Shown in pieces: positions 2,467 to 20,541 of a stretch of DNA of 64,000 nucleotides (position 1 is the stretch's first letter; each line of letters begins with the position of its first letter). The stretch lies in NCBI RefSeq assembly GCF_008831155.1, contig NZ_WBKB01000008.1, positions 1 to 64,000 of the forward strand. The letters run 5' to 3'. The translations under genes and the position numbers were made by a program. Source of the stretch: Gulosibacter chungangensis (lineage in GTDB: Bacteria; Actinomycetota; Actinomycetes; Actinomycetales; Microbacteriaceae). The notes beneath the pieces are model-generated. The model saw only the letters and a list, made by a program, of their open reading frames with translations, ran no database searches and was not told the DNA's origin.

Positions 2467-2498
2467 ACCTCCCTCATGAGACGACTCATGAGGGAGGT
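2467..2498. promoter_or_regulatory. Perfect 14-bp inverted repeat covering the relaxase ribosome binding site
   Basis: ACCTCCCTCATGAG (2467-2480), loop ACGA, then its exact reverse complement (2485-2498). The right arm contains AGGGAGG, the Shine-Dalgarno sequence for the relaxase ATG at 2503. In mRNA the hairpin would hide the site, a simple translational brake. As DNA, an inverted repeat just ahead of a MobF relaxase is also where an oriT-proximal binding site could lie. The two readings are not exclusive. Confidence 0.7.
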
Positions 2499-2502
2499 CG
2501 AG

Positions 2503-5500: not shown

Positions 5501-5958
5501 CGCCTGAGAATCCTGATCGGCTCATCGAATGGGCGCGCAAGGTTGCCGCGAAACGCGCGGGCGCCGACCCTCGCGTGGCCGAGGCAGCGCAGGTTGTCGA
5601 AGCCGCCAGGACCGGCCGCGAGGAAGTACGACGACGCCATGAGCAGGAACGCCGGGCGATGCTCGTGCGCGAGTACGGAGCCGACCAAGCGCGTCGCACT
5701 GATCTCGGAATTGGCGGCGTCAGCTCGCATCGTGTGGTGCGAGATGCTAAGACCCAGGCCGCTATGCTCCGTACCGAGGCCGACGAACTCCGTGCACTGC
5801 CCGTCAACGATGCCGCCCGGCTGATCGAGGCCAAACGTGCCGGGCAGGAGCAGCGCCGACAGCAGATGGCAGAACGAGCCCGTCGGCTCAGCGACCCCTA
5901 CGAGCATGAACTCCATCGTCACAATCCCGATCGCTGGCGGCCGACGCGCGGGCTATGA
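2503..5958 (+). CDS. MobF-family conjugative relaxase/helicase (TrwC/TraA type)
   Basis: About 1151 residues. The N-terminal relaxase domain has a tyrosine pair at 29-30 (nucleophile candidates) and the metal-binding cluster HRHIH at 169-173. The C-terminal half is a RecD2/TraI-like helicase: Walker A GAAGSGKTT at 467-475, Walker B VIVDEAGML, motif III LVGDRAQLP, and the UvrD-like C-terminal signatures YGVQGAT and GMTRGR. A charged coiled-coil-like tail follows. The enzyme would nick at oriT, stay bound to the 5' end and unwind the strand for transfer. I chose the ATG at 2503 because AGGGAGG lies five bases upstream and family members begin at the corresponding M-K-G-G-V; in-frame codons upstream run into the inverted repeat. 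No type IV secretion genes are in the window, so the element is partial or extends left. Confidence 0.9.
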   Translation: MKGGVILFRGSGAAARRYVEADRSRADEYYLDADNAVAEYAVLDASGEVTDTRSLTAEEYEGWVDWTEPITGESMGTPRKPGEGSKGSPLFAEMTLNAPKSLSVAAALHPEVSAALDAAQQDALAEIRRWLGQHSVTRVGPRDQREVLPIERMQVVGIRHKTSRAGDPHRHIHMQIGTRVRAAGKWRALDTAALFKQQGVIRALGTAVIAAHPHLAQTLGEHGLTLDPVSGEVVELRPFNGVMSKRSAQIRRNLDRLKAEWEAEHPGEELGPVMTARLQGIAWTHERPGKKPADLKNEQWWVQELRDAGYNPAAPQRSTVQSLVLLDDLAVQEVASRALDRCAAVSSAWTRHTVQEHVTRITTEHGVQATPAELRDFITMATELAVSDCFSILPPDAATPEHVAHLTSLTVVAAETALRDRLTAATPEQELEHPDVTDAARVAGLDEGQTMAAAAVASSDPLVIVEGAAGSGKTTMLRTAIEAAAEHGRASRVVAPTLRAAQVAHEELGVPATSVAALVHAHGWRWNSDGVWTRLSPGDTDPDTGRTFTGPSADAVLRRGERVIVDEAGMLDQDTAHALLTITAEAGATVALVGDRAQLPAVGRGGVLDMAAQVRGRTYDMTELHRFADAEYAALTLTMRDRENPGEVFDRLAAMGLVTLHADEEQAQQHVTEHATEGEAITVASNDEAATLNERIRTGRVENGEVDDTITAFGSDELPIGRGDLIQTRKNDTALGVANRQQWIVQHIAEDGTLYARETASGRRNPRTVALPPEYVSEHAHLSYAATAYGVQGATVNTSHTLLTEATSAAGVYVGMTRGREHNRLYVIAENLADARAQFVDAMERDRADRGLTHATVQAAEAVRGIIKNGPIRRVTEELARLDREAERVERQAERWDQIAARLDAQRAAHRVEDDESTAVLRKAEEAAEQVRTEVAGPLTVQAERDGAAYLAAVADEAAARGRLATVGRFGRRKTRTEHQAATERTQTLRGQVSTEWGATPENPDRLIEWARKVAAKRAGADPRVAEAAQVVEAARTGREEVRRRHEQERRAMLVREYGADQARRTDLGIGGVSSHRVVRDAKTQAAMLRTEADELRALPVNDAARLIEAKRAGQEQRRQQMAERARRLSDPYEHELHRHNPDRWRPTRGL

Positions 5959-6180
5959 CGTCACTCCTTCACGTGCGTGTCGCCTGGTGACCGCTGACCG
6001 CATGCGGGAGAATGAGAGGGACATCTAGCGAACAGTAGGTGACCGCGTCACCGGTAGGAGGTCTCCGCCAGGTGAAGTCACCCGAACAAACAACGGTGTC
6101 CAGTGGTCACCGCAGTACGCACCGAGCCCTCGGGTTCCCGAAGCGTGGTACCAACCCTAGCGACCGGCAAGGGAACCAAG

Positions 6181-7458
6181 ATGTCCGGTAGCAAGCAGAT
6201 CTCTGTCATCCGGCTCGGCGCGGATGATCCACTACAGGTTGACAGTTCAGGATCGTTGACCGCAGTTCAGACTCGTCGAGTCGAGGCGTGGCTAGCCGCT
6301 TTACTTCAGACCGAGCATCTCTCACTTCTGATCGGCAACGGTTTGAGCGCAGCGGCGGGCAGTATGGCGGGGAAACACCCACCCCTAATGTCTCGCCACA
6401 TCTCAGAAGACGAGGAAGCGCCATTTCCTCGGATAAGAGAGTACGCGAAGGAATCGGCTCAGAACGTCGGTCGAGACGTAAATCTTGAAGACGAGATTCG
6501 AGCTGCCATGATGCTCGCGGATGGCCTCGCTGTGCTCGGTGAGAAGTCCAACGAGAACTCAGTCAGAGATGCCATTGAGGCCGCCATGTCGAGCCTGTTG
6601 AATGAAGTTCTGGATTTCGAAAGAAACATCTGGGAGCACCACCAGAAGTCTGACAGCGAAGCCCTTAAAGTTGCGCGCGCCTTGACACAGTTTCTCGGAC
6701 CCTTCGTCGCGCGGCCAGCTCAACGCGATCGTCTGAACCTCTTTACGACTAACTACGATCGGCTATTGGAGTACGCGGCCGATGTACTTGGTCTACATCT
6801 GATAGACCGCTTCGAAGGCAGGCTCCACCCCAAGTTCAGCGCATCCAGAATCAACCTGGACCTTCATTATTCTCCGCCGGGGATTAGGGGCGAGCCCCGA
6901 CTGGTCGACGGCGTGGCAAGGTTCGCCAAACTGCATGGTTCTATCGACTGGAGCTTCGCAAGAGGGGAGATTTGGCGCGACTCGATTCCTTTCGGCGGGC
7001 CTCGCACAGCTTCGAAAACAGCAGCGAACGCAGTCATCTACCCCAATCCGGCAAAGGATGTTGAGACCCTGTCCTATCCTTACGCCGAGTTGTTCCGCGA
7101 CTTCGCCGCGGCTGTTTGTCGCCCAAATACGACACTGGTCACTTTCGGCTACGGGTTCGGCGATGGTCATATTAATCGCGTGATTGCAGATATGCTCCGC
7201 GTTCCGTCAACCCATTTGGTTGTTGTCTCGCGCGATCCTCTGAGCGCCCTCGATTCCTTCAAGGCCCGGACTCTGTTTCCTGTGTCGCAGACGACTGAAC
7301 TTTTGGGCCCGGATGTAGGAGGCCTTGAAGAGTTCTCCTCCTTGCTCCCCGCAATTACCTCGGATCGAATCCTTGAAGCTCAGTTCGAATACCTCAACAA
7401 GCGATCTAAACTTGAGGATGAAATCGAGCCGAAGAACGCCGACAATGAGGGCTCATGA
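6181..7458 (+). CDS. SIR2-family NADase-like protein of a SIR2-HerA defence pair
   Basis: 425 residues. SIR2-like NAD-binding features are visible: GNGLS at 52-56 in place of the classical GAGIS, TTNYD at 189-193, the catalytic-type LHGSIDW with His252, and GYGFGD at 323-328. This set is typical of phage-defence SIR2 proteins, which hydrolyse NAD+, and not of deacetylases. The ATG at 6181 is preceded by AAGGGA at a spacing of six; an upstream in-frame GTG at 6103 is less likely. It overlaps the HerA-type ATPase gene by four bases (ATGA). SIR2 and HerA form a complex in the known two-gene anti-phage system, where infection triggers NAD+ loss and abortive death. G+C is visibly lower than in the relaxase. 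Confidence 0.87.
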   Translation: MSGSKQISVIRLGADDPLQVDSSGSLTAVQTRRVEAWLAALLQTEHLSLLIGNGLSAAAGSMAGKHPPLMSRHISEDEEAPFPRIREYAKESAQNVGRDVNLEDEIRAAMMLADGLAVLGEKSNENSVRDAIEAAMSSLLNEVLDFERNIWEHHQKSDSEALKVARALTQFLGPFVARPAQRDRLNLFTTNYDRLLEYAADVLGLHLIDRFEGRLHPKFSASRINLDLHYSPPGIRGEPRLVDGVARFAKLHGSIDWSFARGEIWRDSIPFGGPRTASKTAANAVIYPNPAKDVETLSYPYAELFRDFAAAVCRPNTTLVTFGYGFGDGHINRVIADMLRVPSTHLVVVSRDPLSALDSFKARTLFPVSQTTELLGPDVGGLEEFSSLLPAITSDRILEAQFEYLNKRSKLEDEIEPKNADNEGS

Positions 7459-9485
7459 GCACACCATTCGATTTTCGCAAGAACCAGATCATCGGTTCAG
7501 TGGAGAGTGTCTCTCCCCGAGAGATTAGAGTCTCTCTATCGGACGAAGCACCAAGCGCAACGTCGTTGGATGCAGGCCTCGTGCAACGATTTCCCCGAAT
7601 CAACTCATGGGTGCTTATCCCCAGCGAGGTCGGTCATTTGGTTGGTGTTGTCACTTGGATAGGCATAGATAGCTCGATGCCCTTGGTGGCTGAACGTCAC
7701 GACCGAACGCTGCTCGACATCCCTTTCCCGCGGCGGCGAATGTCGGTCACCCCGTTAGGGACCCTGAGATGGGGGTCGACTCACGACACGTCGCCCGAAC
7801 TAGTTCGGGGTGTCGTCTCCTATCCGTCGGTAGGTGAGCCGGTATTGGTTCCCGATGCCGAGCAAATCCGAGCGATCGGCAGCGCAGGAGCTGCAGGCGG
7901 GAAGGTTGTACTAGGCACATCACCTCTCGCAGGCGATACGGATGTCGCATTCGATCCAGACCGCCTCTTCGGCAGACATTTGGCAGTCCTTGGATCGACG
8001 GGATCGGGCAAGTCATGTACCGTCGCTGGGCTTGTCCGCTGGTCACTATCGGCTGCACGCGAAGCGTCCAGCAACAACAAATCGCGTGCCAGGTTCGTAG
8101 TACTAGACCCGAACGGCGAGTACAAGGATTGCTTCAAAGACTTGACCGGCGTGAGGGTCCTCCGCGTTGAGCCCAGCAGCCAAGGCGAAGAGAGGCTCAC
8201 TGTTCCCGCTTGGTCCTGGTCAAGCGCTGAATGGGCCGCAATCACCAGAGCCTCCTTGCAGTCGCAACGGCCTCTGCTTCAACGCGCCCTCAGAAACCTC
8301 CGAAATAGTCTAGATCCAGAGATTGAGGGGATCGATCGTCTAGCAGTAGAGCTTCGGGCTCATTTCGATATATGGAACATCCTGCGAAGCGACATGCCTG
8401 CGTATTTCAACTTTCCGCGATACAAGGGTTTCACTTTGGTGCTGGAAGACATGGAGGGGGTCTTCTCTCCCTGGCAAGACGAAGACGGAATCCCAGAGCT
8501 TCTCGAGCATGTTAGGGATATGCAACAGCGCCATTCTTCGACTCGCCAATACGGAGAGAATAGCTATGTAAGCAGTGAGGTTGATGGACTTCTTGACTGC
8601 CTTCGTCGCGCCCTCACCGAGCTAGGCGAGCCGGAATCTTCCCCGAAGTATACGGAGGACATGCCAGTAGTTTTCGACCCACAGGATCTTCCGTCTCAAC
8701 TTGAAGCACTGCTGAGGACACCTGATTTCCAGAGGGATGCCGGATATGCGTCATCGTTCCAAATGAGAGTCAAAGGTTTGTTGGGCGATCTTCGTCATCA
8801 GCCGATCATTGCACCTGACGGTGATGAGACCCTTGCGGAATGGCTCAGCAAGTTTCTCGGAGACGAAGAATGTGAGAATGGCGAAGTCGCTGTCGTCGAT
8901 TTGTCGCTTTTGGCCCCAGAGGTCGTTCACACTGCGGTTGCAGTGATCGGACGTCTAGTTATGGAGGCCCTCCAGCACGTCAGAGCAATCACTGGCGAAG
9001 TTCTTCCGACTGTGCTGGTGCTCGAAGAAGCGCACAGTTTCGTAGCATCCGGCGTCAGCAGTGCAGATATACCGACCAGCGCTGATCTCTGCCGTGAGAC
9101 TTTCGAACGCATCGCGCGAGAGGGCAGAAAGTTCGGACTTGGTCTTGTGCTGTCCTCGCAACGCCCCTCTGCGCTTTCCCAGACTGTGCTCTCTCAGTGC
9201 AACAGCTTCCTTCTTCACCGCATCGTGAACGACCGAGATCAGGATCTGCTCGGACGATTGGTGCCTGACTCGCTCGGCGAGTTATTGCACGAATTGCCGT
9301 CGTTGCCACCACGCCAGGCAATCCTGCTTGGGTGGGCAGCGGAGGTACCGACTCTTGTCGAGGTAGGTCACCTTGATCGCAGCCAACGGCCGCACTCAGA
9401 CGACCCTCGCTACTGGGATACTTGGACTGTCGGCAAGACTATCGAGTTCGACTGGCAAGCAGTTGTCGATCATTGGACATCCTGA
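7455..9485 (+). CDS. herA: HerA-type DNA-translocating ATPase of the SIR2-HerA defence pair
   Basis: 676 residues. The first ~150 residues have the character of a HAS-barrel. The FtsK/HerA-type motor follows, with Walker A GSTGSGKS at 180-187, Walker B TVLVLEEAH at 519-527 and the sensor/arginine region SSQRPS at 567-572. HerA proteins form hexamers. In archaea they pair with NurA nuclease; in bacterial defence pairs the partner is an NADase or nuclease, here the upstream SIR2 gene, whose stop overlaps this start. A hand count of the 60-base line at 8521 gives 50% G+C against 67% for the line at 5161 in the relaxase, consistent with separate ancestry. Confidence 0.87.
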   Translation: MSTPFDFRKNQIIGSVESVSPREIRVSLSDEAPSATSLDAGLVQRFPRINSWVLIPSEVGHLVGVVTWIGIDSSMPLVAERHDRTLLDIPFPRRRMSVTPLGTLRWGSTHDTSPELVRGVVSYPSVGEPVLVPDAEQIRAIGSAGAAGGKVVLGTSPLAGDTDVAFDPDRLFGRHLAVLGSTGSGKSCTVAGLVRWSLSAAREASSNNKSRARFVVLDPNGEYKDCFKDLTGVRVLRVEPSSQGEERLTVPAWSWSSAEWAAITRASLQSQRPLLQRALRNLRNSLDPEIEGIDRLAVELRAHFDIWNILRSDMPAYFNFPRYKGFTLVLEDMEGVFSPWQDEDGIPELLEHVRDMQQRHSSTRQYGENSYVSSEVDGLLDCLRRALTELGEPESSPKYTEDMPVVFDPQDLPSQLEALLRTPDFQRDAGYASSFQMRVKGLLGDLRHQPIIAPDGDETLAEWLSKFLGDEECENGEVAVVDLSLLAPEVVHTAVAVIGRLVMEALQHVRAITGEVLPTVLVLEEAHSFVASGVSSADIPTSADLCRETFERIAREGRKFGLGLVLSSQRPSALSQTVLSQCNSFLLHRIVNDRDQDLLGRLVPDSLGELLHELPSLPPRQAILLGWAAEVPTLVEVGHLDRSQRPHSDDPRYWDTWTVGKTIEFDWQAVVDHWTS

Positions 9486-9646
9486 ATCGCGCGACACGCG
9501 AGTCCGTCTCGGAGACTTCTTGCCGCCACGGAGGAAGTGATCGCTAGAGCGGGTCTCGACTGCGCAAGTCGCGCATCACGAGTGTATCCGACAATCGTGC
9601 AAATCCAGTAACCTGGTACCGCGCACACGCGCAAGATCACAGGTAA

Positions 9647-10663
9647 GTGTGTTTGGGGTACCTCGGCTACGCCGTCACGGCACACCGGGCTCAAGGAATC
9701 ACGACCGACACCGCGCACACGGTTGTGACCGCGACAACGACACGGGAGAACTTCTACGTCGCGATGACCCGCGGCCGCAACGCAAACCACGCTTATGTCG
9801 CCGTGGACCGACCGGATGATGCGCACAGCCAGCTCCACCCAGGCGATAACACCGATGCCACTGCCAGGTCAGTGCTCTACGGAGTCATGCAACACGTCGG
9901 TGCTGAACTCTCCGCCCGCGAAACCATCACCGCGGAGCAAGAGCAGTGGGGCTCGATCGCCCAACTCGCCGCGGAGTACGAGACGATCGCGCAAGCCGCC
10001 CAACACGACCGCTGGGCGACCTTGCTACATGCGAGTGGCCTCACGCCTGAACAGGCCGAAGACGTGCTTGCCTCTGATGCATACGGTGCACTATCGGCGG
10101 AGTTGCGACGAGCGGAAGCGAATCACCACGATGTGGATCGGCTCCTGCCACGCCTCGTGCAGGCACGCAGCGTTGAGGATGCCAATGACATCGCCTCGGT
10201 ACTGCATGCCCGACTCGCTAAAGCGACCGTCCGCCCAGCCGGGTCAGGGCGGACGCGCAAACAGCCACGCCTGATCGCAGGACTTATCCCACCCGCAGAC
10301 GGAACCATGAGTCCAGAAATGCGGCAGGCACTCAATGAGCGACGCGAGCTGATCGAGCAACGCGCCGACGCCGTTCTCAACACAGCACTCGCTGACGGCG
10401 AAGAGTGGGTCGCCCTGATCGGGCCGATTCCAGAGGAACCGAAAGTGGCCACGGCATGGACTCGGCAAGCACGAGTGCTCGCCGCTTACCGTGACCGGTA
10501 CCAGATCAGCGGAGCGCACCCATTAGGTCCTGTACCCGAACGCACTGCGCAGAAGATCGCCCACGTCCGAGCACAGACCGCACTCCAACGACTCCAAGAA
10601 ATCCATACGCCCATGCAACGGCGCGACCACCAACGCGCCGTTAATCGCGCTCGCGGACTCTGA
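9647..10663 (+). pseudogene. 5'-truncated C-terminal piece of a second MobF relaxase/helicase
   Basis: The frame begins abruptly in the last helicase motif, LGYAVTAHRAQG, followed by YVAMTRGR, which in an intact MobF protein lie hundreds of residues from the start. About 300 residues of the normal helical C-terminal region follow, without internal stops. The relaxase domain, Walker A and Walker B are missing. The GTG at 9647 is only the first start-like codon in the frame. It differs from the C-terminus of the relaxase at 2503-5958 (HRAQGITT against YGVQGATV), so it is a relic of another element and not a duplicate. The break near 9650, just after the SIR2-HerA pair, suggests that the pair arrived by replacing the front of this gene. 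Confidence 0.8.
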
Positions 10664-10794
10664 AATCGACTGTCACCGCGTGTGTCGCTCCCTCCTTACA
10701 GCAGGGCCATGGGTGATACTTGATGACCATATGTATCTCTTAAACAAGTAGGCGATTCGCAGAGCCGAGTCATCGCCGGAGAGCGAGGCAGGCA

Positions 10795-12549
10795 ATGGCT
10801 ATTTCGCCCCCAACGATCAGGCTCTGGGATGATAATCCCAGCACGCTCGACTTTCTAGGATTCGACGCAGTGGTCGACCCGATCGTCGCAGCGATCCGTG
10901 AACACAAGATTCACCCCCTTACGCTCTCGGTGCAGAGTCCCTGGGGTGGCGGCAAATCCACCGTGCTCAAGCTCATCGAGGCAGAGTTCGAGAACGACGA
11001 GACTTGCTTCGTCGTCTCTACCAACCCGTGGGCATACGACGATCAGGATGACGTCAAGGGCACCTTGATTGCCGAGATCCTTCACGGCATTCAGGCTCAG
11101 ATTAAGGACTCTGGGGTCAAAGCGAATGTTGTGGCTAAGGCCAAGGAACTTCTGGATCGGGTTAGTTGGAGCCGTGCAGCAGTCGCGATTGCCAAGGGTG
11201 CTCTGACTTTCCAAATAGACCCTCAGCAGATCGCTGAGATATTCCGTCCGAAGGACCCGGCTGGTCCGGAGTCGATGGCGAGCTTCAACGATGCTTACAA
11301 GGACATGCTGGCATTGATCCCGAAAGTGGAGCGGGTCGTGGTGCTCGTCGATGATCTTGACCGTTGTCTGCCGGATGCGGTGACCGCGACGCTCGAAGCG
11401 ATCAAATTGTTCCTGTCGACCGAGAAGATGGTGTTCGTCCTTGCCGCTGACCAGGAAATGGTTCGTGACGCTATCTCGGTCAGCCTTGATGGTGCTCGAC
11501 GCGGCGACATCTTTGCCAAGCGTTACCTGGAGAAGATTGTCCAGCTCCCAATTGCACTTCCGCGCTTGTCCGGAGCGGACGCAGAGGCGTACATTGGCCT
11601 CCTGATTGCTGGGCGTTCGATGGAAAGCGACGACCTACGGAAACTTGCAGACCATGTTCGAACGCGTAGGAATTCCAACCAGACGCCACTGCTACACGGC
11701 CTAGATGACTTGGACGTCGTACCAACCGATGAGGATTTAGCGTTGGCGACCCAACTCGCAGAGGGCTTGAGCGCTGATCGTCGGTCTAATCCTCGACAGA
11801 TCAAAAGGTTTCTCAACGCATTCGGGGTTCGCGAGTCCATCGCGCTGGCGCGCGGTGTGAATGTTGCTCCATCAGTGATGATCAAACTGCTCCTGCTCGA
11901 AGAACTCTACAGAACCTCCTTCAATACGCTCGCTGCAGCACCCGTTCAAGATCGCAGAGCGCTTCTGGCCCGATGGGAGGGTTGGGCACGCCCCTCCGGA
12001 AAGGAGGGGGAGGACGCCACATTGCCTGACGGCATTGATGAAGGAACGAAAGAGTGGGCCGCCGCGCCCCCGTTCCTGAAGGATCTGAACCTCGATCCCT
12101 ACATCAGTCTCGCTGCCAGCCTTATCAACGTCAGCATGGGCGCGCAGGTTTCGGACGACCTGCTCGCCTTCATCAATGACCTGCTCAGCGAAAGTGAAGC
12201 AGTGCGCGATGTCGCCGCAGACGCTCTAGCTGACCGGGGACAAGATGAGCAACTCGCGGCGCTGGAGGTACTGATCGGTGCCACCAAACGTACCGACGAC
12301 GCAGAAGCAGTGATCCGTGGTGCAGTCGTGTGGGTTGGGAAAAACGCTGCACTCGAAGATGCCGCGGCGACAGGCATTGAGCTGCACTGCTGGGGAGCGC
12401 GACTCACACCGGGAGCGATCGTCGAACTTGCCAACAGCCGTCGGCCTGCGCTTGTTAATCTTGTGAAACGTGCTGCGCAAGATACCTCGCTACACCCTTC
12501 GACACAAGAAAGTGCACGCGACGAGCTGGGGCAGCTAAATGGGAACTAG
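10795..12549 (+). CDS. qatA: QatA: KAP-family P-loop NTPase of a QatABCD defence operon
   Basis: 584 residues. The KAP-type P-loop is at 48-56 (SPWGGGKST) and the Walker B region at 181-190 (VVVLVDDLDR), with the characteristic DDLDRC continuation. A region shortly after reads FAKRYLEKIVQLP, also usual for KAP NTPases. The C-terminal 200 residues are helical and mostly family-specific. KAP ATPases occur in several defence systems; here the identity as QatA comes from the three genes that follow. Its stop lies 11 bases inside the next gene. GAGGC precedes the ATG at 10795. Confidence 0.87.
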   Translation: MAISPPTIRLWDDNPSTLDFLGFDAVVDPIVAAIREHKIHPLTLSVQSPWGGGKSTVLKLIEAEFENDETCFVVSTNPWAYDDQDDVKGTLIAEILHGIQAQIKDSGVKANVVAKAKELLDRVSWSRAAVAIAKGALTFQIDPQQIAEIFRPKDPAGPESMASFNDAYKDMLALIPKVERVVVLVDDLDRCLPDAVTATLEAIKLFLSTEKMVFVLAADQEMVRDAISVSLDGARRGDIFAKRYLEKIVQLPIALPRLSGADAEAYIGLLIAGRSMESDDLRKLADHVRTRRNSNQTPLLHGLDDLDVVPTDEDLALATQLAEGLSADRRSNPRQIKRFLNAFGVRESIALARGVNVAPSVMIKLLLLEELYRTSFNTLAAAPVQDRRALLARWEGWARPSGKEGEDATLPDGIDEGTKEWAAAPPFLKDLNLDPYISLAASLINVSMGAQVSDDLLAFINDLLSESEAVRDVAADALADRGQDEQLAALEVLIGATKRTDDAEAVIRGAVVWVGKNAALEDAAATGIELHCWGARLTPGAIVELANSRRPALVNLVKRAAQDTSLHPSTQESARDELGQLNGN

Positions 12550-13417
12550 CGGCGCATACGGTGGCAGCAACTCCACCGCGTGGAATGAGTTCAGGGACGC
12601 GTGGTCCGGACTCGGCTCATCGGGCGACGGGGACGGAACGGAGGGAACTGATAATTCTAAGCCAGATCAACCTTCAGACACTCTCTTCGACCCGATATCG
12701 CCAGCGTCGAATCTCGACCGCGTCGGTCAAGCTCTAATCGATGCGCTCTGGCGCGACGACCCTTCGACTAGACGCAACACTGTGCCTCCGATTCCTCGAC
12801 CCCGCACCCCGGGACGACGAGGAGCAGGTGCCGGAGGAGCAAGTGGCGCTGGAGGAACTGGAGGACGCTCCGCAGGAACTGGACGATCCGGCAGCAGATC
12901 TTCCAGACAGGTCATTGGCGGAGCATCCCGCGGCGGCGCAACGATTGGGGCGGCTTACGCACTAAGGAACCGCGATACTCAGAGGCTAGCGGACTACGGC
13001 CTTTCGCTTGCCGAGTTCGACTCACTGACCCCGCGAGCACGCATCAGCAAACTCGTGGCCCTCATGATCGGCGACGATGGACACCCCGATGATCGAGCCA
13101 TCCGACGGGCAGCTACGGAACAAGTCAAGAGGATCGTCGCCACTGACGGCGAACCACCGACCGCTAACGAAGCGATCAAGGGGTTCGTAAGCGCTTACAT
13201 CTTCCAGCTCGGACTCGTCGAGCTCAAAGACCAGATCACGAGCGGCACACTCGACGGGAATGAAGCCTTAACCCGCGAAAGAATGTTGCGAGGCTGGATT
13301 GATGCCAAAGTCCGAGCACTTGATATTGATGCTGGCCCGGCCCTGTCGGCTAACGACCTGCATCAAACCGCCGCTGACCTCGCTCAACGAGCGATCCGCG
13401 TATTGAGGGCGAGGTAA
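12539..13417 (+). CDS. qatB: QatB-like protein, Gly-rich linker plus helical C-terminal domain
   Basis: 292 residues starting with Met-Gly-Thr-Ser. Residues ~80-130 are a very Gly/Ala/Ser/Arg-rich, surely flexible stretch. After that comes a compact-looking helical domain beginning with GGASRGGATIG. QatB has no enzymatic motif; it is defined by its position between a KAP ATPase and a QueC-like protein. QueC-like proteins of defence loci have been proposed to attach a deazaguanine to the N-terminal glycine of a partner protein; a second-position glycine here would fit such a substrate, but this is inference. It overlaps qatA by 11 bases and ends five bases before qatC. Confidence 0.78.
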   Translation: MGTSGAYGGSNSTAWNEFRDAWSGLGSSGDGDGTEGTDNSKPDQPSDTLFDPISPASNLDRVGQALIDALWRDDPSTRRNTVPPIPRPRTPGRRGAGAGGASGAGGTGGRSAGTGRSGSRSSRQVIGGASRGGATIGAAYALRNRDTQRLADYGLSLAEFDSLTPRARISKLVALMIGDDGHPDDRAIRRAATEQVKRIVATDGEPPTANEAIKGFVSAYIFQLGLVELKDQITSGTLDGNEALTRERMLRGWIDAKVRALDIDAGPALSANDLHQTAADLAQRAIRVLRAR

Positions 13418-13422
13418 CCAAC

Positions 13423-14706
13423 ATGCCACAGACTCACTTCTACATCTCAGGTCAAGATTCCACGCAGGACAGTCCAATTGCCTATCAACGATTGAGATGG
13501 CCGACCGGAGGAGGCGAGACTGAAACGATTAAGACTAGCCTGGGCTGGTGGCTCCCTTCATTGGGTCACGTCCCAGACCGAGCCGTCGACCTTGTTCGTA
13601 TTGCTGGAGCCGCGTATCTCGCAGATCGACTCTCTGCAAGGCCGTCCGCTTTCACGCGGAGTCTTCATCTCACCGTGGAGGTTGCTGACCCGGTTCCCTG
13701 GGACGGCGAAGGGGCGAATCAACTTGCTCAGCTCCTCTCTTGGCTCACTGGCGACGCGTGGGAGATCGACCTGATCCAGGACCCAACCACCAGATCCGAT
13801 TCTGGCGCTAGCGAATCACTCGATGTTGCGACGTCCGTCGCTCTCCTCAGTGGTGGACTCGACTCATACCTCGGTGCTTTACACCTGCTAGCAACGCTTG
13901 ACGAGGTACCCCTCTTCGTCAGCCACTACGACACCGCAACCGCAGTGCGACAAGCTCAGAACGCAGTCCGCTTCTGGCTTCAAGATTCCTACGAATCTGT
14001 ACCTTCCTGCACCCAGCTTGAGTTCACCCAGGTTCAGGAGAAGAAGGAACGCTCCAGTCGAAGCCGTTCGCTGCTTTTCGTGGCCTTCGGAGTCGCTGTC
14101 GCAACCAGCCGCCAGGCGACAACGTTATACGTACCCGAGAACGGCTTCACCAGTCTGAACCTGCCCCTGCACCCCAATCGTGCCGGTGCGCTCTCCACCC
14201 GCTCTACACACCCCGAGACGTTTTATCGTATCAATACACTTCTCCAGACCATCGGCCTGTCGGTATCCGTAACTAACCCGTTCGCCAATTACACCAAGGG
14301 TGAAGAGATGCGCCTCGTGGCGGACAGCCGCCCACCAGCAGGGTGGGTTCAGACTGCCAGCCTCACAATCTCGTGCAGCAAGCTCGACGGTGGTCGCATC
14401 AAAGGCGGCGACTCGACCCTTAACTGCGGCCTGTGCTACTCGTGCGTAACCAGGCGAGGCACATTCATTGCAGCTGAAATAGACGACTCGACGATCTACT
14501 TATCCGATAATCTCGTCGGTAATGCACGAGACGAACTTCTGCAGCGACGATTCAGCGACCGCGCGGCCATTAGCTACGCAGTCGTGCGTGGCATCGACGA
14601 GGACGAGATCGATGCGGGAACTTGGCCACCAGATGCAGACCTGGACGCCATCAGTGACCTAGCCGCACGTGGCCTCGCCGAGCTAGGGCAGGTAGACCTG
14701 ACATGA
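13423..14706 (+). CDS. qatC: QatC: QueC-like PP-loop enzyme of the Qat operon
   Basis: 427 residues, about twice the length of housekeeping QueC. The ATP pyrophosphatase loop SGGLDS is at 143-148. A four-cysteine zinc site is visible: Cys318, then Cys335, Cys338 and Cys341 in NCGLCYSC. QueC makes 7-cyano-7-deazaguanine in queuosine synthesis, but no queD, queE or queF lies nearby and the extra N-terminal domain of ~135 residues belongs to the defence form. It probably performs a related amide or nitrile-forming reaction on a partner rather than on free base. Five bases separate it from qatB, and its stop overlaps the qatD start (ATGA). Confidence 0.87.
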   Translation: MPQTHFYISGQDSTQDSPIAYQRLRWPTGGGETETIKTSLGWWLPSLGHVPDRAVDLVRIAGAAYLADRLSARPSAFTRSLHLTVEVADPVPWDGEGANQLAQLLSWLTGDAWEIDLIQDPTTRSDSGASESLDVATSVALLSGGLDSYLGALHLLATLDEVPLFVSHYDTATAVRQAQNAVRFWLQDSYESVPSCTQLEFTQVQEKKERSSRSRSLLFVAFGVAVATSRQATTLYVPENGFTSLNLPLHPNRAGALSTRSTHPETFYRINTLLQTIGLSVSVTNPFANYTKGEEMRLVADSRPPAGWVQTASLTISCSKLDGGRIKGGDSTLNCGLCYSCVTRRGTFIAAEIDDSTIYLSDNLVGNARDELLQRRFSDRAAISYAVVRGIDEDEIDAGTWPPDADLDAISDLAARGLAELGQVDLT

Positions 14707-15458
14707 TCGATAAAGACCTTCCAGCGCTAGACACTCACGCCCACATCGACCCGGACGTTACGCCAAGTCAGATCGCGGCCCTTGGTAACGCCGTTGTGTT
14801 CGCCGTGACCCGAAGCCTCCATGAAGCAAACCAGGTCAAGAACCGACGCGACTCCTCGCTAATCTGGGGACTCGGCGTCCACCCAGGAGTCTCTACCGCC
14901 CGTGCTGCTTGGGATCCGCAACAGTTCAAAAGCCTCCTCAGTTCGTTCGCTCTAGTGGGCGAAATCGGGCTCGACCGACGCGGCGGCGCACTGGCTGAGC
15001 AGAGGTCCATCTTTAAAGAAGTGCTCGCTATAGTGCGCGATGAGCCTGTGTTGGTCTCCATACATAGCTCCGGTGCATCGACGGAGGTCGTGCAGTCTCT
15101 CCATGACGCTGGGATGCGCGGCGCAATCTTGCACTGGTTCAACGGTGATCACACTGACGTCCAACGAGCTATCGAAACCAACGCGTACTTCTCTGTGAAT
15201 GCCGCGATGTCCCGAGAACAGATCCAACAATTTCCTCGCGAACGGGTGTTGTGTGAGACTGACTTCCCAGCGCGAAAGGTGCGTGCTCGTAAACCCGCAG
15301 ACATGGCGGCCATAGAACAGCTTCTGAGCGAAGTATGGAAAACGAGTCCGGAAGAAGTTCGGGCTGCAACATGGTGGAACCTGCGCACGTTGAGTGAACA
15401 ATCTGGAGCTATCGAACGCCTACCTGAAAGCATTGCAGACACGTTGTTGTATCTTTAG
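14703..15458 (+). CDS. qatD: QatD: TatD-family metal-dependent nuclease of the Qat operon
   Basis: 251 residues, close to normal TatD length. All metal-ligand motifs of the family are present: DTHAHID (His12, His14), GVHPG, GEIGLD with Glu87, IHSSG, LHWFNG and ETDFP with Asp187. TatD proteins are TIM-barrel DNases; in the Qat system the TatD-like member is required for phage protection. It is translationally coupled to qatC and is the last gene of the operon. I found nothing missing that would argue against activity. Confidence 0.87.
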   Translation: MIDKDLPALDTHAHIDPDVTPSQIAALGNAVVFAVTRSLHEANQVKNRRDSSLIWGLGVHPGVSTARAAWDPQQFKSLLSSFALVGEIGLDRRGGALAEQRSIFKEVLAIVRDEPVLVSIHSSGASTEVVQSLHDAGMRGAILHWFNGDHTDVQRAIETNAYFSVNAAMSREQIQQFPRERVLCETDFPARKVRARKPADMAAIEQLLSEVWKTSPEEVRAATWWNLRTLSEQSGAIERLPESIADTLLYL

Positions 15459-15496
15459 ACGGACGGTCCGTCCTCAGTGAGTTAGCCGAGTTTTTA
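15458..15496 (+). terminator. Weak candidate terminator after qatD
   Basis: GACGGAC and GTCCGTC are complementary arms around a single G (15458-15472), so a hairpin with a shorter five-base stem can form. A run of five T lies at 15491-15495, rather far downstream. It may instead be a protein-binding palindrome. Confidence 0.25.
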
Positions 15497-15737
15497 TCTG
15501 TCGTACGTTTCTGCTAATCACGAGGTGTTGTGACCTCAATCCCGTATTTTTCATCGGTCATGTCCTTGGGCTTTTAGAGTTCCGATCGGGTTACCTTCCC
15601 TCCTGTCAGTGCTTCGTCGTATCCTGGTGACAGAGGCGGATTCTCATTCCAACGCGCCACTTGTGGCAGATCCTTCAGGTCACTCTTCAACGCATCGCCT
15701 CGTCGGAGTTGTTTGTGCGATGGAGAGGAACGAGACC

Positions 15738-16121
15738 GTGATCCGCTTGCTCTGGACTGGAAGTGTCCTTACCCGAAATTTTCTGCGTCGGTACATGCCG
15801 ACCAATATCCTGCTTGATGCGATCCGCACCCCGCGCGGCCTCAAATGGGGCGTGCCAGCGATGCTGTTGGCGATCCCATACTTCGTGATCGCGGCAATCC
15901 TGATACAGGTCATCAACGATGGCGGCCCAGCTTGGCTCAATGTGCTTGTCCTGTCGAGCATTTGGAACGGACTCAAGATGTTGTGGATCGGTCCGTTAAG
16001 TCTGATGCTGCTTGCGCGTCTCCATGTCAACCGGCTCAAGACCGGAGCCAGAAGTCAGCAGAGGACCCAGGAAATGTTTGGCGAAGATACTGAATATTGT
16101 GATTTAGAAACGGCGCGCTGA
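15738..16121 (+). CDS. Small membrane protein of mobile-region type, unknown function
   Basis: 127 residues from the GTG at 15738, which has GGAGAGG nine bases upstream; the open frame extends to 15609 but the added residues look non-coding. The protein has the block RRYMPTNILLDAIRTPRGLKWG, abbreviated here by its ends R-R-Y-M and L-K-W-G, then two membrane segments and a charged tail. I recall similar small proteins in actinobacterial integrative elements, where they are often mislabelled as sulfate permeases; no transport domain is present. Role unknown. Confidence 0.65.
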   Translation: MIRLLWTGSVLTRNFLRRYMPTNILLDAIRTPRGLKWGVPAMLLAIPYFVIAAILIQVINDGGPAWLNVLVLSSIWNGLKMLWIGPLSLMLLARLHVNRLKTGARSQQRTQEMFGEDTEYCDLETAR

Positions 16122-16194
16122 TCCGCGTCATTATCTACACATGCATCACAAGACCAAACGATCCGTACTGCGATCGTTGATCTCGTAGGTTGCC

Positions 16195-17211
16195 TCAGAG
16201 ATCACGGTGAGCTGAATGAGCGGCACGAGCATGTGCCGAGTATCTGTCCATACGGAATGCTTCGGCGCTGAGTGGCGGCATCGAGCCTGAAGGCGGCTGT
16301 TTCTCGGAAAGTGCCCGTATGTCGTTGGCATTGGTCACGACACTGGCGACGCCCTGGGCAATGAGTCGATGCGGGCCATAACTCGTGGCACTTGTCACCG
16401 GCCCCGGCACCGCACCGACGTTCCGTCCCAGCGAGTATGCCTGTTGAGCCACCAGTAACGAGCCCGACCGTGAACCGGCTTCAATGATCGTCGTTGAACC
16501 AGAAAGTGCAGCTTCGATGCGGGCACGGGCCATGAACCGTGCTCGTGTCGGCGTGGCTCCCGGCGGCTGCTCGCTCACCAACAGTCCAACATCACTCACA
16601 CGTTCAAGCAAATCTCGATGACCCGCTGGGTATGGACGGTCAATTCCACCGGCCATCACCGCAATCGTATGACCCGCAACCGCCAACGCAGACCGGTGTA
16701 CTTCACCATCTATGCCGTATGCGCCACCAGCGACAATTACTTTCCCATCACTGGCAAGGTAAGCAGAGACATCGTTCGCGACCTGCACGCCGTAGCTGGT
16801 TGCCGCACGTGCACCCGTGATCGTGAAGCGATCGTTCTCTGGCATTGCCAGTAGCGACTCATCGCCTTTGACCCAGAGGACATAGGGGGCACTGTCGCCG
16901 AGATCGTGGAGCGACGCCGGATAGTTGCCATCGCTGGGAATAAGCGTCTTGAAGCCACCATGCTCAGTGAGGTCGAGTGCTTCTTGGATCAGTCGTGGTT
17001 CCACCCGGGGCATCAAGCGTTTACGCCACAGCTGAGCTTCCACGTTATCCAAACCGGGAACCGGTGCGTCGTCGGCAAGCATCGTGACAGTGTTGACCGC
17101 GCCGTGAACTGCAAGGAGATGCCCCGTTGTTGCATCAGTGGGGTCCGTGATCATGGTCAGGGCGATCCGTGCCGCACGTTCGTCCGTCGTGAATGCCAAG
17201 AGCGTGTCCAT
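16195..17211 (-). CDS. DprA/Smf-like DNA-processing protein, accessory copy
   Basis: 338 residues from the ATG at 17211, which is preceded by GAAGGGAACGGG. The Rossmann-like Smf domain is recognisable by GGAYGIDGEVH (about residue 175), GGIDRPYPAGH, SEQPPG and the following glycine-rich GSTTIIEAGSRSGS. DprA binds single-stranded DNA and loads RecA during uptake. The family's winged-helix C-terminal domain is not evident. The housekeeping dprA of actinobacteria normally sits beside comM-like and topA genes, so this is probably an island-borne paralogue protecting or processing incoming single strands. The frame extends to a TTG at 17265 that overlaps the stop of the HTH gene, but the internal ATG has the better binding site. 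Confidence 0.8.
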   Translation of the reverse strand: MDTLLAFTTDERAARIALTMITDPTDATTGHLLAVHGAVNTVTMLADDAPVPGLDNVEAQLWRKRLMPRVEPRLIQEALDLTEHGGFKTLIPSDGNYPASLHDLGDSAPYVLWVKGDESLLAMPENDRFTITGARAATSYGVQVANDVSAYLASDGKVIVAGGAYGIDGEVHRSALAVAGHTIAVMAGGIDRPYPAGHRDLLERVSDVGLLVSEQPPGATPTRARFMARARIEAALSGSTTIIEAGSRSGSLLVAQQAYSLGRNVGAVPGPVTSATSYGPHRLIAQGVASVVTNANDIRALSEKQPPSGSMPPLSAEAFRMDRYSAHARAAHSAHRDL

Positions 17212-17261
17212 GTTCCCGTTCCCTTCGTCGTTGAAGGGAAGGTGAGCATTCGACGCCCGGG

Positions 17262-17603
17262 TCAAGCATTCATTCGACGGCGGCCTTTGGGTCGAATCGT
17301 ACCCCCATTGGCTACCACGGCCGAGCGGACGGCTTCGTCGCCGATTCCCAACTGCGCTGAAACTTGACTGAGGGTGAAACCCTCGGCGTAGAGGCGTGCC
17401 GCCTCACTTCGTAGCTGTTGGGAATGTTCTGGGGCTCTGCTTGGGTGACCCGCTCGCCGAGCAATCTCTCGCACCGTCGCACGATGAACGTTGAACCTTC
17501 TTGCCAGCTCCTGAACCGGCACCCCCTCGGCGTACCCAGCAAGAAGCGCGACTCGACTCGAGGCACTCAAACGGGTTTGAGACTGACCCGAATTTTTACG
17601 CAT
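17262..17603 (-). CDS. Resolvase-like helix-turn-helix protein
   Basis: 113 residues from the ATG at 17603; the open frame extends to 17735 but I see no good start there. Two helix-turn-helix units of the Hin/resolvase kind can be read: GVPVQELARRFNVHRATVREI and later FTLSQVSAQLGIGDEAVRSAV (shown here only as landmarks G-V-P-V..R-E-I and F-T-L-S..S-A-V). There is no serine recombinase catalytic domain. The stop lies next to the dprA-like gene, and the two look like one transcription unit. It could be a regulator of that unit or the DNA-binding remnant of a recombinase. Confidence 0.6.
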   Translation of the reverse strand: MRKNSGQSQTRLSASSRVALLAGYAEGVPVQELARRFNVHRATVREIARRAGHPSRAPEHSQQLRSEAARLYAEGFTLSQVSAQLGIGDEAVRSAVVANGGTIRPKGRRRMNA

Positions 17604-17934
17604 CGGACCACGGGAATCAGCCGCGAGGTTGGTACCCCTACGTGTTTGCTGTGACTTCGATCCCTTGATAACACGGGAAATCAACGTTCTTCGCGGCTTG
17701 CTGGGGTTTGAGAAGTACCTATGGAGGCCCACCACGGTTCACCCCAGTGAATATAAAGAACCCCTGCCTCTCCCTCGTGGAGTTGGCGGGGGGGTCTTTC
17801 TCGCTTCCCGACCCCCAACGCGACCCCCTCGATAGTCGGCTTTAGGGCTTATAGGCCCGATTGTCCGGCTTCCCTCGAGAATGTTCGAGCTGCCGCGCAT
17901 TGGTAGCGCCTATTGCACCCAGTTTTGCGTCGTT
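17604..17934. other. Intergenic stretch at the right edge of the accessory region
   Basis: No convincing gene. It contains a GC-rich stem, GGGGGTC (17790-17796) with GACCCCC (17810-17816), and runs of G and C. This may be a terminator region or a scar at the island border. I found no tRNA or obvious attachment repeat. Confidence 0.4.
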
Positions 17935-20541
17935 CTAGGCCTTGGGGCGGAAGGTTGGTCCGCGGGTGTCCCAGGGCGCGTTCTCATATCCCGGGATCGG
18001 CACCGGTGGTTGCTCCTTCCGGTAACCAAGATCGAACCGCTTCCGGCCACCCAACCGCGGCTCACGCAGTGGATCGACGTTCGCCGGTGGGATGAACCAC
18101 ACGGTCCCGCCGCCTCGCTGTTTCGCGCGCTTCGCGGCGCGCTTGGATTTCGCCGGGTCATGGACGATCCGGATTTCCCAGCCCGCGTGCACCCGCCGAT
18201 GACACGAACTGCACAGCAGGATCCCGTTATCGAGATCAGTTTTCCCACCGTGCGCGGTCCAATACGCCATGTGGTGGGCTTCGGTCATCCCGGGTGGCAG
18301 CCCGCAGAATGCGCAGCCCCCGTCACGTTCGATCAGCGCGAGTCGCTGCCCACGGGTGAAGTGTCGTACTTCGCGGCCGAGATCGAGCACGACCGAGTCG
18401 TAGCCGAGCACGATCGGGATAATCCCAGCCGCGGCCGCGATCCGTCGCGCGGTAGCAACATCGATGATGGTGCCGCCCGCGGCACCATCGATCGTCGCGA
18501 TCCCAGTGTGCACCCGGTTCGGGTAACTCGTGCCTGGCTGGTTGGTGTTCGTGCAGTTAGAAGCTGCTGGGGAACGGAACGCCGCAGCCGGGTCACCGGC
18601 CACCGCGTCAGGGACACCAGCATTCACAGCGCCACCGACGTCACCAGCACCAGCACCAGCACCAGCACCAGCACCAGCACCAGGGTGTCCGGCATCAGCC
18701 GAATCATCAAAGTCGGCGTCGGCGTGAGTGTGATTGTCTGCACCCGGACGATCGCCGTCGGTCCCGGACGTGTCTACACCGTCGGCGCCAGCCTTGGCAC
18801 CAGCACAAGCCTCACAATCGCCACAACCAGCAGCAGGACCGCCAGTGGCTGTTCCAGAGATACTGGCCTGTAGTTCGGCGAGCTGCTCGGGTGGGAGGAA
18901 GTCTTCCAGCCCCATCCTCACGACCACGCTCATCGACGGGCCGGGAAGCTTCGAAAGATCACAGCCGATAATGTGCTTGGCGAAATCCACCATCGCATCG
19001 GCCTGGATCTGCGGGATCGACCTGGTTTCGACAGCAACTTGGTCACGCCGATACGGGTCCTTGCCCGAGTCATTCCGGAAGCTGCCATCAAGAAACGCTG
19101 CCTGCGCCACAGCATCGTCAGCCCCAGCACCGCCGGCCGCAGTATCGTCGGTCTCAGCATCGTCCGGAGCAGGATGTGTTGCCGGCTCGGCATCAGCAGC
19201 CAGGTCACTTCGTCCGTTACCGCCACCCTGCTGGTCAGAGCCGTCGGCGCGAGAAACAACGCTCTGCGCAGTAGTAGTGGCGTCAGGGTGGTCCGGGTCC
19301 AATACCAGGCCATCGGGGTGGTTGTTGCCACGGGAGGCGCGCAACGTCGCGGTGACGTACGCTTCGAACACCTGCAGCACCGTCGCACCGGATTCCGCAT
19401 CGAACTTCCCATTCATGTGCAGTATCCCGGTGTCCTGGTTCTTACGGAATGTGACACTGTTCTGCCGGCGTTGCGCCTCGATCGTCGGGGCAACCCCGTC
19501 CGGATCCAAATACCCCTCCAAATGCGCCATCGCGGCCCGAAACTCCTTCAACGGCAAGCCAGCGCAGGCGATATCCACCAGCAGTTGTTCGCCCTCGTCG
19601 ACCTCCTCCGGATCGACCCTCGCCTTTTCCCCAAGCTTCTCGGTAAGCCGAACAATGTCGTTAGCGTGCGCGAACCCCAGCTCCCCAGCACGCACCGCAT
19701 CAGCGACAACCTCGTTCTTCGCTTGAAGCCGTTCGCCGGTGAGAGCCCGTTCGCCAATGATGGCTTGCCCGAGCTTTGTGAGCACGAACGCGTCACGACG
19801 TTCAATCTGGACACAGTCCGCGAAGAACTGCGATGGAGACTTGTATCCGTATTGGAAGTCAAGCCGCTGATCCAGCAACTCACCCCGCGACCGATACGCG
19901 ACCTCCTGCGCGATCACCGCAAGCGTTGACGACAGCTGCCGCTGGTGAGCCGACACCACCTCGATCAAGTCCAGGAACCGGTCTTGCGAGGCCGCTTCCA
20001 GATCATCTTCAAGAACTCCGCGAGAGAACGGGAAACTGCGCGCGTACGAGTCGATGAAGCGAGCGAATGACTCGATTAACCGGGCAAGATCACCATCACG
20101 CGACATACCCTCCGGCAAAGTGAAACCCGACCCAAACACGAAAGCACCAGCATCGGCGCCAGCAGCACCAGCACCAGTAGCGGCACCAGCACAGGAACAG
20201 GAACCACCAGTGGCCCCAGTGCTATCGCCCGTGGGCGTGGTCGTGGCGTCGACAGATTCACGCCCTGCGGAGCCAGGGGACGTGAAATTGGGAGCGGGCT
20301 CAGGCACCGTAGCCCCTATTGCATCGACTTCGTCCCACGGGGAACGCCTGGAGAGCCCAGCGACGATGTCCTCAAACCCGGTACCGGGTGCGCCCAAGGC
20401 ACCCCAAGCATCCGACGCACCGGAAGCACCGGAAGCACCGGAAGCACCGGAAGCACCGGAAGCACCGGAAGCACCGGAAGCACCACGATACCTATTGAAG
20501 TCGTCGTCATCGTCGGCAAACGTCGAATCGCACACGGTCAT
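17935..20541 (-). CDS. DUF222 / 13E12-repeat protein with C-terminal HNH nuclease domain
   Basis: 868 residues, longer than the usual 400-550. The start is supported by GGGAGGTG before the ATG. After a low-complexity N-terminus made of repeated Gly-Ala-Ser, the DUF222 domain runs from about residue 150 to 420. A Gly/Ala/Asp-rich linker with a (Gly-Ala)n tract follows. The HNH domain is near the C-terminus: CAFCG, EAHHM, the DLDNG motif and CSSCHRRVH provide the zinc and catalytic histidine pattern. Such genes are abundant and repeated in Actinobacteria; their biological role is not settled. The linkers look like expansions of simple DNA repeats. Confidence 0.9.
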   Translation of the reverse strand: MTVCDSTFADDDDDFNRYRGASGASGASGASGASGASGASGASDAWGALGAPGTGFEDIVAGLSRRSPWDEVDAIGATVPEPAPNFTSPGSAGRESVDATTTPTGDSTGATGGSCSCAGAATGAGAAGADAGAFVFGSGFTLPEGMSRDGDLARLIESFARFIDSYARSFPFSRGVLEDDLEAASQDRFLDLIEVVSAHQRQLSSTLAVIAQEVAYRSRGELLDQRLDFQYGYKSPSQFFADCVQIERRDAFVLTKLGQAIIGERALTGERLQAKNEVVADAVRAGELGFAHANDIVRLTEKLGEKARVDPEEVDEGEQLLVDIACAGLPLKEFRAAMAHLEGYLDPDGVAPTIEAQRRQNSVTFRKNQDTGILHMNGKFDAESGATVLQVFEAYVTATLRASRGNNHPDGLVLDPDHPDATTTAQSVVSRADGSDQQGGGNGRSDLAADAEPATHPAPDDAETDDTAAGGAGADDAVAQAAFLDGSFRNDSGKDPYRRDQVAVETRSIPQIQADAMVDFAKHIIGCDLSKLPGPSMSVVVRMGLEDFLPPEQLAELQASISGTATGGPAAGCGDCEACAGAKAGADGVDTSGTDGDRPGADNHTHADADFDDSADAGHPGAGAGAGAGAGAGDVGGAVNAGVPDAVAGDPAAAFRSPAASNCTNTNQPGTSYPNRVHTGIATIDGAAGGTIIDVATARRIAAAAGIIPIVLGYDSVVLDLGREVRHFTRGQRLALIERDGGCAFCGLPPGMTEAHHMAYWTAHGGKTDLDNGILLCSSCHRRVHAGWEIRIVHDPAKSKRAAKRAKQRGGGTVWFIPPANVDPLREPRLGGRKRFDLGYRKEQPPVPIPGYENAPWDTRGPTFRPKA
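18643..18683. repeat. 6-bp tandem repeat (ACCAGC), nearly seven units, inside the HNH gene
   Basis: 41 bases of uninterrupted ACCAGC. On the coding strand it gives a (Gly-Ala)n tract in the linker ahead of the HNH domain. The unit length is a multiple of three, so slippage would change linker length without a frameshift. Confidence 0.9.
20417..20484. repeat. 9-bp tandem repeat (GCACCGGAA), seven full units plus part of an eighth
   Basis: Seven exact GCACCGGAA units at 20417-20479 followed by GCACC. On the coding strand each unit encodes Gly-Ala-Ser near the N-terminus of the DUF222/HNH protein. The units are identical at the base level, which indicates recent expansion. Confidence 0.9.

What the first reader, a model, noticed from the sequence alone, without database searches (positions are those of the whole stretch)
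10795..15458. Complete QatABCD operon with all catalytic motifs kept
Seen: KAP P-loop, Met-Gly QatB with a Gly-rich linker, SGGLDS plus a four-Cys site in QatC, full TatD metal ligands in QatD, and overlaps or a five-base gap between genes. Known: QatABCD is a described phage-defence system. No other queuosine genes are nearby.
Basis: partly seen in the sequence, partly recalled or inferred. Interest (0 to 1): 0.82.

Follow-up and report, generated by a model that had tools for sequence, protein, structure and literature searches.

The report
Qat phage defence without deazaguanine supply
This stretch holds a complete four-gene bacterial anti-phage system of a known type (Qat), but no genes were found in its host to make, import or use the queuosine-type base that the system's key enzyme has been proposed to attach to its partner protein, which casts doubt on that proposal and makes it easy to test.

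Summary
In detail: 10795-15458 is a complete qatABCD operon with its catalytic motifs intact. It is a divergent member. All four proteins score under the NCBIfam cut-offs, and QatB is securely recognised only by profile. QatB keeps the MGTS start. QatC has Ser at the position published as invariant Thr280, as in 25 of 88 QatC rows.

The most useful result is genome-wide. The host genome (99.71% complete) has no QueC, QueD, QueE, TGT or YhhQ match; its one PF06508 match is GMP synthase. Of 57 QatC-bearing genomes, 35 lack QueD, 44 lack a clear QueE, and 16 lack QueD, QueE, TGT and YhhQ. By contrast, 63 of 69 genomes with canonical QueC have QueD. Key QatC active-site residues are kept in all 16 of those hosts.

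Best reading: a probably working Qat system whose QatC modifies QatB Gly2 with a donor other than host-made 7-carboxy-7-deazaguanine. The identity is near certain, the donor is inferred, and function was not tested.

The parts
10795..12549 (+). qatA: KAP-type P-loop ATPase, 584 aa
   Evidence: PADLOC QatA 2.3e-71; NCBIfam QatA 285.9 bits, cut-off 600; KAP_NTPase 1.9e-43
12539..13417 (+). qatB: 292 aa, MGTS N-terminus, Gly-rich linker, helical C-terminal domain; putative substrate of QatC
   Evidence: Profile matches to solved QatB 4.3e-64 and to other QatBs; model with QatB as top PDB match, moderate overlap
13423..14706 (+). qatC: QueC-like ATP-dependent enzyme, 427 aa; SGGLDS, STRSTHP (Ser at P. 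aeruginosa position 280), four-Cys site
   Evidence: PADLOC QatC 1e-67; solved QatC 4.2e-44 by sequence, 6.5e-20 by fold
14703..15458 (+). qatD: TatD-type hydrolase, 251 aa
   Evidence: PADLOC QatD 2.5e-32; TatD_DNase 3.7e-30

Best explanation
10795-15458 is a complete, probably working QatABCD anti-phage operon carried in a mobile, relaxase-bearing region. Shown in print for P. aeruginosa and E. coli relatives: QatB and QatC form a complex that alone can stop some phages, QatC's ATP site and QatB's N-terminal Gly are needed, and QatA and QatD affect the phage range. Inferred here: after removal of Met, Gly2 of QatB enters the QatC site; QatC activates a donor with ATP and joins it to the Gly amine; modified QatB, helped by QatA and QatD, blocks the phage. 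The donor is probably not host-made 7-carboxy-7-deazaguanine (CDG), because no genes for it were found in this genome or in most of the 57 QatC-bearing genomes tested with all markers. A common carboxylic acid, or the adenylyl group of ATP itself, is more likely. Identity as Qat about 0.97; non-CDG donor about 0.6.
For: Identity. Host: no match to QueD, QueE, QueC (TIGR00364), TGT or YhhQ in a 99.71% complete genome, the one PF06508 match being GMP synthase. Carriers: QueD in 22 of 57, QueE at 41 bits or more in 13 of 57, TGT in 32 of 57; 16 of 57 have none of the three, and 0 of those 16 have YhhQ against 17 of 19 TGT-only genomes. Control: 63 of 69 genomes with QueC have QueD against 2 of 8 QatC carriers of the same draw, Fisher p 9e-5. 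The gene-free host state needs at least 14 changes on a tree of 57 QatCs. Listed active-site columns are kept in 16 of 16 gene-free hosts. In print: Thr/Thr replaces the Tyr/Asp pair that holds CDG, and a crystal grown with CDG and ATP showed ATP only (PMC13279940).
Against: 13 of 57 carriers have QueD and QueE, and QueD is in 18 of 29 further carriers, mostly metagenome-assembled, so 40 of 86 overall. QatC carriers do not differ from the rest of their draw in QueD (p 0.48): absence of the pathway is common there anyway. Imported or phage-made CDG is not excluded. Completeness is unknown for the 49 genomes reached through loci. 6 of 69 genomes with QueC also lack a QueD match, so a miss does not always mean that the pathway is absent. 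PMC13329287 describes QatC as proposed to carry out carboxydeazaguanylation. Defence by this operon is untested.
Confidence: 0.6

Rival explanations
1. QatC does use CDG, as Cap9 does, but in hosts like this one the base comes from outside: scavenged from neighbouring bacteria, or made by an infecting phage that carries deazaguanine genes, so that the phage's own metabolite arms the system.
For: QatC shares the fold of Cap9 (9nto_B, E 8e-4), QatB has the N-terminal Gly of a Cap9 substrate, and G2D abolishes defence in P. aeruginosa Qat (PMC13279940). That some phages make deazaguanines is stated in PMC13329287.
Against: No YhhQ in any of the 16 gene-free hosts, though CDG is not known to me to be its cargo. 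The Tyr/Asp pair that holds CDG is replaced (PMC13279940).
Confidence: 0.2
2. QatC joins nothing to QatB. It binds ATP and the QatB tail as a regulated scaffold or ATP-driven switch, and release of the QatB tail upon infection is the signal.
For: Authors report that QatC catalysis could not be reconstituted in vitro, and that ATP binding barely changes the complex (PMC13279940).
Against: ATP-site and Thr278/Thr280 mutants abolish defence (PMC13279940); catalytic columns are strongly kept across 88 QatC rows.
Confidence: 0.13
3. The operon is an idle passenger in this host, carried on a mobile region without its needed donor.
For: Low-GC island (0.578 for 6001-17800, 0.635 for 20000-64000) with a complete relaxase gene and the C-terminal remnant of a second.
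Against: All four frames are open with motifs kept. The block stays alignable at 71-79% DNA identity over 4.7-4.8 kb in four other genomes (L020, L022, L023, L024). Active-site columns are kept in 16 of 16 gene-free hosts scattered over the tree. Selection (dN/dS) was not measured.
Confidence: 0.07

Closest known systems
QatABCD of P. aeruginosa and E. coli (PMC13279940; solved QatB/QatC 9y01, 9y02, 9zee, 9zef, 9vlk, 9vll)
   Same: Four genes in the same order; KAP ATPase, MGTS-start QatB, QatC with SGGxDS and four Cys, TatD-type QatD
   Different: All four under the NCBIfam equivalog cut-offs; Ser instead of Thr280 in QatC; no Pro-x-aromatic segment at QatB residues 12-26, absent from 18 of 18 Ser280-type QatBs found; no deazaguanine genes found in the host
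Type IV CBASS Cap9/Cap10 with CD-NTase (PMC11996544, abstract read; PMC13279940)
   Same: QueC-type enzyme paired with a protein starting Met-Gly; fold match to Cap9 at 8e-4
   Different: No Cap10 match at E 1e-20 in the own genome; QatB matches solved QatB, and no CD-NTase was found among the 10 window proteins scanned around it
Housekeeping QueC (TIGR00364)
   Same: ATP-pyrophosphatase-type core with SGGxDS and Cys site
   Different: 427 aa with N- and C-terminal extensions; 13.2 bits on TIGR00364; no QueD or QueE in the genome

Membership tests
QatABCD | KAP-type ATPase QatA | tested here: met
   PADLOC QatA 2.3e-71; NCBIfam 285.9 bits, under its cut-off of 600
QatABCD | QatB with N-terminal MGTS motif and QatB helical domain | tested here: met
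   MGTS start; profile matches 4.3e-64 and 98.8%; single-sequence NCBIfam E 0.0063, under cut-off; fold overlap moderate, TM-score by target 0.44-0.46
QatABCD | QatC with QueC core and extensions, SGGxDS, Cys zinc site | tested here: met
QatABCD | Thr278 and Thr280 of QatC, called invariant in PMC13279940 | tested here: not met
   Thr278 kept (T259), Thr280 is Ser (S261) here and in 25 of 88 rows. As the change occurs across a clade that is Qat by all other tests, I take it as variation within the family, not a defining feature
QatABCD | TatD-type QatD in the operon | tested here: met
   PADLOC QatD 2.5e-32
QatABCD | Protects against phages | not testable with these tools
   No experiment possible
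Canonical QueC (queuosine) | QueC equivalog score and company of QueD/QueE | tested here: not met
   13.2 bits, cut-off 150.3; no QueD or QueE
Type IV CBASS | Cap10 (TGT-like) partner | tested here: not met
   No match to PDLC00913 at E 1e-20 in the own genome
CDG-dependent protein deazaguanylation | Host supply of CDG (QueD and QueE) | tested here: not met
   supply from outside not excluded
CDG-dependent protein deazaguanylation | Deazaguanine adduct on the N-terminal Gly | not testable with these tools
   Needs mass spectrometry

The most novel reading that the evidence does not exclude
Across the family, QatC joins something other than a deazaguanine to the N-terminal Gly of QatB: a new ATP-dependent N-terminal protein modification, evolved from QueC, that spread freely into bacteria with no deazaguanine metabolism.
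Probability: 0.5. Interest if true: 0.75.

Novelty: new member of a known kind. Interest (0 to 1): 0.5.

Why it matters
What QatC does to QatB is called unresolved in print (PMC13279940), with CDG attachment by Cap9 as the guiding analogy. This genome and 15 further QatC carriers in which no deazaguanine gene was found mean that host-made CDG cannot be a general requirement, unless the operon is idle in all of them. The open question becomes a plate assay in standard E. coli deletion strains, and this operon, from a host without CDG genes, is a natural test case.

Tried and rejected
Rejected: QatC as housekeeping QueC. The PF06508 match at C20:71696-72214 as a queuosine gene: it is GMP synthase, 774.8 bits. 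A link of Ser280 with missing deazaguanine genes: Ser in 7 of 16, 7 of 19, 7 of 9 and 3 of 13 rows of the host classes none, TGT only, QueD without QueE, QueD with QueE. Depletion of QueD among QatC carriers: none (2 of 8 against the rest of the draw, p 0.48), so the argument is lack of a requirement, not avoidance. Type IV CBASS as a positive control failed for numbers: 1 Cap10 carrier in 396 genomes; it has QueD and QueC. Promoter and terminator scan: fewer sites than in shuffles, uninformative. QatA has no solved relative by sequence at E 0.01. QatB alone has no PDB match at E 1.

Limits: the QueE line of 41 bits was drawn after seeing the scores; weaker matches (35 bits or less, apart from fragments beside strong ones) cover only about 80-125 residues. 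Of 18 genomes with a QatC match I used 8 (216 bits or more) and dropped 10 (3 partial at 84-95 bits, 7 at 18-21 bits). Of 530 QatC loci 80 were kept by the tool, best matches to the window's QatC first, so distant QatCs are under-sampled; 49 went into the full marker set, chosen mostly as isolates (L023 is labelled MAG), 29 more into QueD alone; L040 and L094 were not held. Genome completeness is not told for genomes reached through loci. The genomes are related in part, so the 57 are not independent. In the QatC alignment a few rows outside the 16-host class lack or alter active-site columns; only the best-scoring open frame was used. The tree is a quick one; G023 and G178 sit on very long branches. 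Structure models rest on 25 and 7 sequences.
Full report
What is there. Four + strand ORFs lie at 10795-12549, 12539-13417, 13423-14706 and 14703-15458, overlapping by 11 bases, separated by 5 and overlapping by 4. PADLOC names the first QatA (2.3e-71), the third QatC (1e-67) and the fourth QatD (2.5e-32); the second has no PADLOC hit. Pfam gives KAP_NTPase, QueC (C-terminal part) and TatD_DNase. NCBIfam gives all four Qat names, each under its equivalog cut-off: 285.9 of 600, 16.5 of 100, 261.1 of 280 and 126.4 of 230 bits, so automatic annotation may miss the system.

QatB. Alone it matches nothing in the PDB at E 1. A 25-row QatB alignment with the window's protein first (A2) matches solved QatB 9zee_A at 4.3e-64 and 9vll_A at 1.2e-57. 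As A2 contains five rows of the other type, I also compared 20 rows of the window's type (A4) with 18 others (A3): 98.8% probability, E 6.4e-17, over 170 columns of the C-terminal domain. The predicted structure (mean pLDDT 75) has QatB 9y01/9y02 as the only confident PDB match (probability 1.00; next best listed near the top 0.12), but with E 0.03-0.05, TM-score by target 0.44-0.46 and rmsd about 6, so the overlap is moderate. QatC matches solved QatC at 4.2e-44 by sequence and 6.5e-20 by fold, with Cap9 third at 8e-4.

Relatives. A scan of genome contigs found 530 QatC relatives and kept the best 80. By single-sequence search with the window's proteins QatA is found in 74, QatB in 37, QatD in 77 of the 80; the genes found are in A-B-C-D order on one strand in 79 of 80. 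A QatB start of the form start-Gly-Thr-(Ser/Lys/Asn/Gln) is found before QatC in 73 of 80 loci: MGTS 57, VGTS 7, MGTK 5, MGTN 2, MGTQ 1, LGTS 1, V and L being alternative start codons; the seven without are L021, L025, L026, L048, L052, L055 and L080. A Pro-x-aromatic segment at residues 12-26, as in the published Pro16/Trp18 region, is in 23 of 73 and in 0 of the 18 paired with a Ser280 QatC. QatC reads T-(R/K)-T-T-H-P in 58 of 80 and T-(R/K)-S-T-H-P in 22 of 80. By the alignment with 9zee_B, whose numbering fits the N265, R272, L273 and H282 of the paper, the varying position is Thr280, called invariant in PMC13279940. With the window and seven more genomes, Ser is at 280 in 25 of 88 rows, with two changes on a tree of 57, one of them the long-branch row G023.

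Surroundings. The window is the start of contig C20 of a 3.24 Mb genome (99.71% complete, 1.23% contamination). Region 6001-17800 has GC 0.578 against 0.635 for 20000-64000 and 0.652 for 1-6000. Upstream lie a complete MobF-type relaxase gene (2431-5958), a SIR2-HerA pair and the C-terminal part of a second TraA (9647-10663). L029 (Microbacterium) and L044 (Tessaracoccus) carry a much longer second TraA frame (1239 and 1084 codons, the latter cut by the locus end), qat, and a homologue of ORF 15609-16121; qat comes before that ORF in L029 and after it in L044. So qat looks like cargo of related mobile regions. The block shared with L020 runs from 10682 to 15458 at 79% DNA identity.

Deazaguanine genes. 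Cap9 attaches 7-carboxy-7-deazaguanine (CDG), made through QueD and QueE (PMC13279940 and PMC13329287). The own genome has no QueD, no QueC by TIGR00364, no TGT, no QueE and no YhhQ importer; its single PF06508 match is GMP synthase, 774.8 bits. I then tested other carriers: 57 genomes, 8 and 49 through loci. QueD is in 22, TGT in 32, QueE at 41 bits or more in 13. Combined: none of the three 16; TGT only 19; QueD only 7; QueD and TGT 2; QueD and QueE 2; all three 11. YhhQ is in 0 of the 16 and 17 of the 19: the 16 show no trace of the pathway, while the 19 look like salvagers. In 29 further carriers, mostly metagenome-assembled, QueD is in 18, so 40 of 86 overall.

Controls. In one draw of 396 genomes of the window's phylum (taken to be Actinomycetota), QueD is in 160 and QueC at 138 bits or more in 69, 59 of them over the cut-off. 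Of the 69, 63 have QueD; of the 8 clean QatC carriers in the draw, 2 have QueD and none has such a QueC (Fisher p 9e-5). QatC carriers do not differ from the rest of the draw in QueD (p 0.48). The one Cap10 carrier, G062, has QueD and QueC; one case proves little. In the 14 named control genomes QueD rings in 9 and QueE in 10. On the quick tree of 57 QatCs the gene-free host state needs at least 14 changes and QueE 9, so QatC passes freely between hosts with and without the pathway. The clade of seven rows around the window holds gene-free hosts (window, L022, L024), TGT-only hosts (L021, L023), one with QueD and TGT (L020) and one with QueD and QueE (L025). In all 16 gene-free hosts D68, SGGxDS, R213, R215, E239, T259 (Thr278), T262, H263, P264, T291, K292 and the four Cys are kept.

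Reading. For P. [quoted passage not shown]). That paper saw ATP but no CDG in the crystal, notes Thr/Thr in place of the Tyr/Asp pair, and calls the reaction unresolved. PMC13329287 (parts 1-3 of 5 and find passages read) describes protein carboxydeazaguanylation as proposed, and tested QatC for tRNA queuosine complementation and in phage assays. Of PMC11996544 only the abstract was held. The present data add that hosts often seem unable to make CDG. A different donor is the simplest reading; outside or phage supply is the main rival; a non-covalent role of QatC and an idle operon are less likely.

Whether this is already in print. Searches for QatABCD, deazaguanylation, QatB, QatC, and QatC with CDG or QueE and finds in the two papers showed no co-occurrence analysis and no que-deletion test of Qat. 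Two further structural studies cited there were not seen: Oh and Bae is not held, and the preprint of Z. Gao and others was not looked up, as preprints are not held. Supplements were not open to me. So such a test may exist.

Verdict.

Noticed in passing
window 6103-9485: SIR2 (6103-7458, PADLOC SIR2 7.7e-188) overlapping HerA (7455-9485, PADLOC HerA E 0, 1042.7 bits): a second defence-type pair just upstream of qat.
   Followed up: partly
window 2431-5958 and 9647-10663: A complete MobF-type relaxase gene (NF041492 132.5 bits, over its cut-off) and the C-terminal part of a second TraA, with SIR2-HerA lying where its front part would be by comparison with L029 and L044.
   Followed up: partly
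window 15609-16121: 170-aa ORF without Pfam, PADLOC or NCBIfam match that recurs near qat in L029, L044, L056 and L065.
   Followed up: no
window 16195-17735 (- strand): DprA-like protein (ShosA model 5.4e-47; DprA 187.7 bits, just under its cut-off) overlapping a helix-turn-helix protein: possibly another defence pair.
   Followed up: no
window 17935-20541 (- strand): 868-aa protein with long Gly/Ala/Asp-rich stretches and a C-terminal HNH endonuclease domain (PF01844 5.2e-9).
   Followed up: no
L092:4071-7124: In a Verrucomicrobiaceae contig a SIR2-like and a HerA-like gene follow qatD directly (5e-9 and 4e-42), the same company as in the window.
   Followed up: no
L100 (from genome G410, Actinokineospora): QueD-type, radical-SAM and TGT-like (144 bits) genes beside ATP-grasp, dioxygenase and ABC-transporter genes: looks like a deazapurine natural-product cluster rather than queuosine synthesis.
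   Followed up: partly
L036 and L037: Two Streptomyces with identical QatC, one host with none of QueD, QueE, TGT, the other with a QueD-family gene but no QueE or TGT.
   Followed up: no
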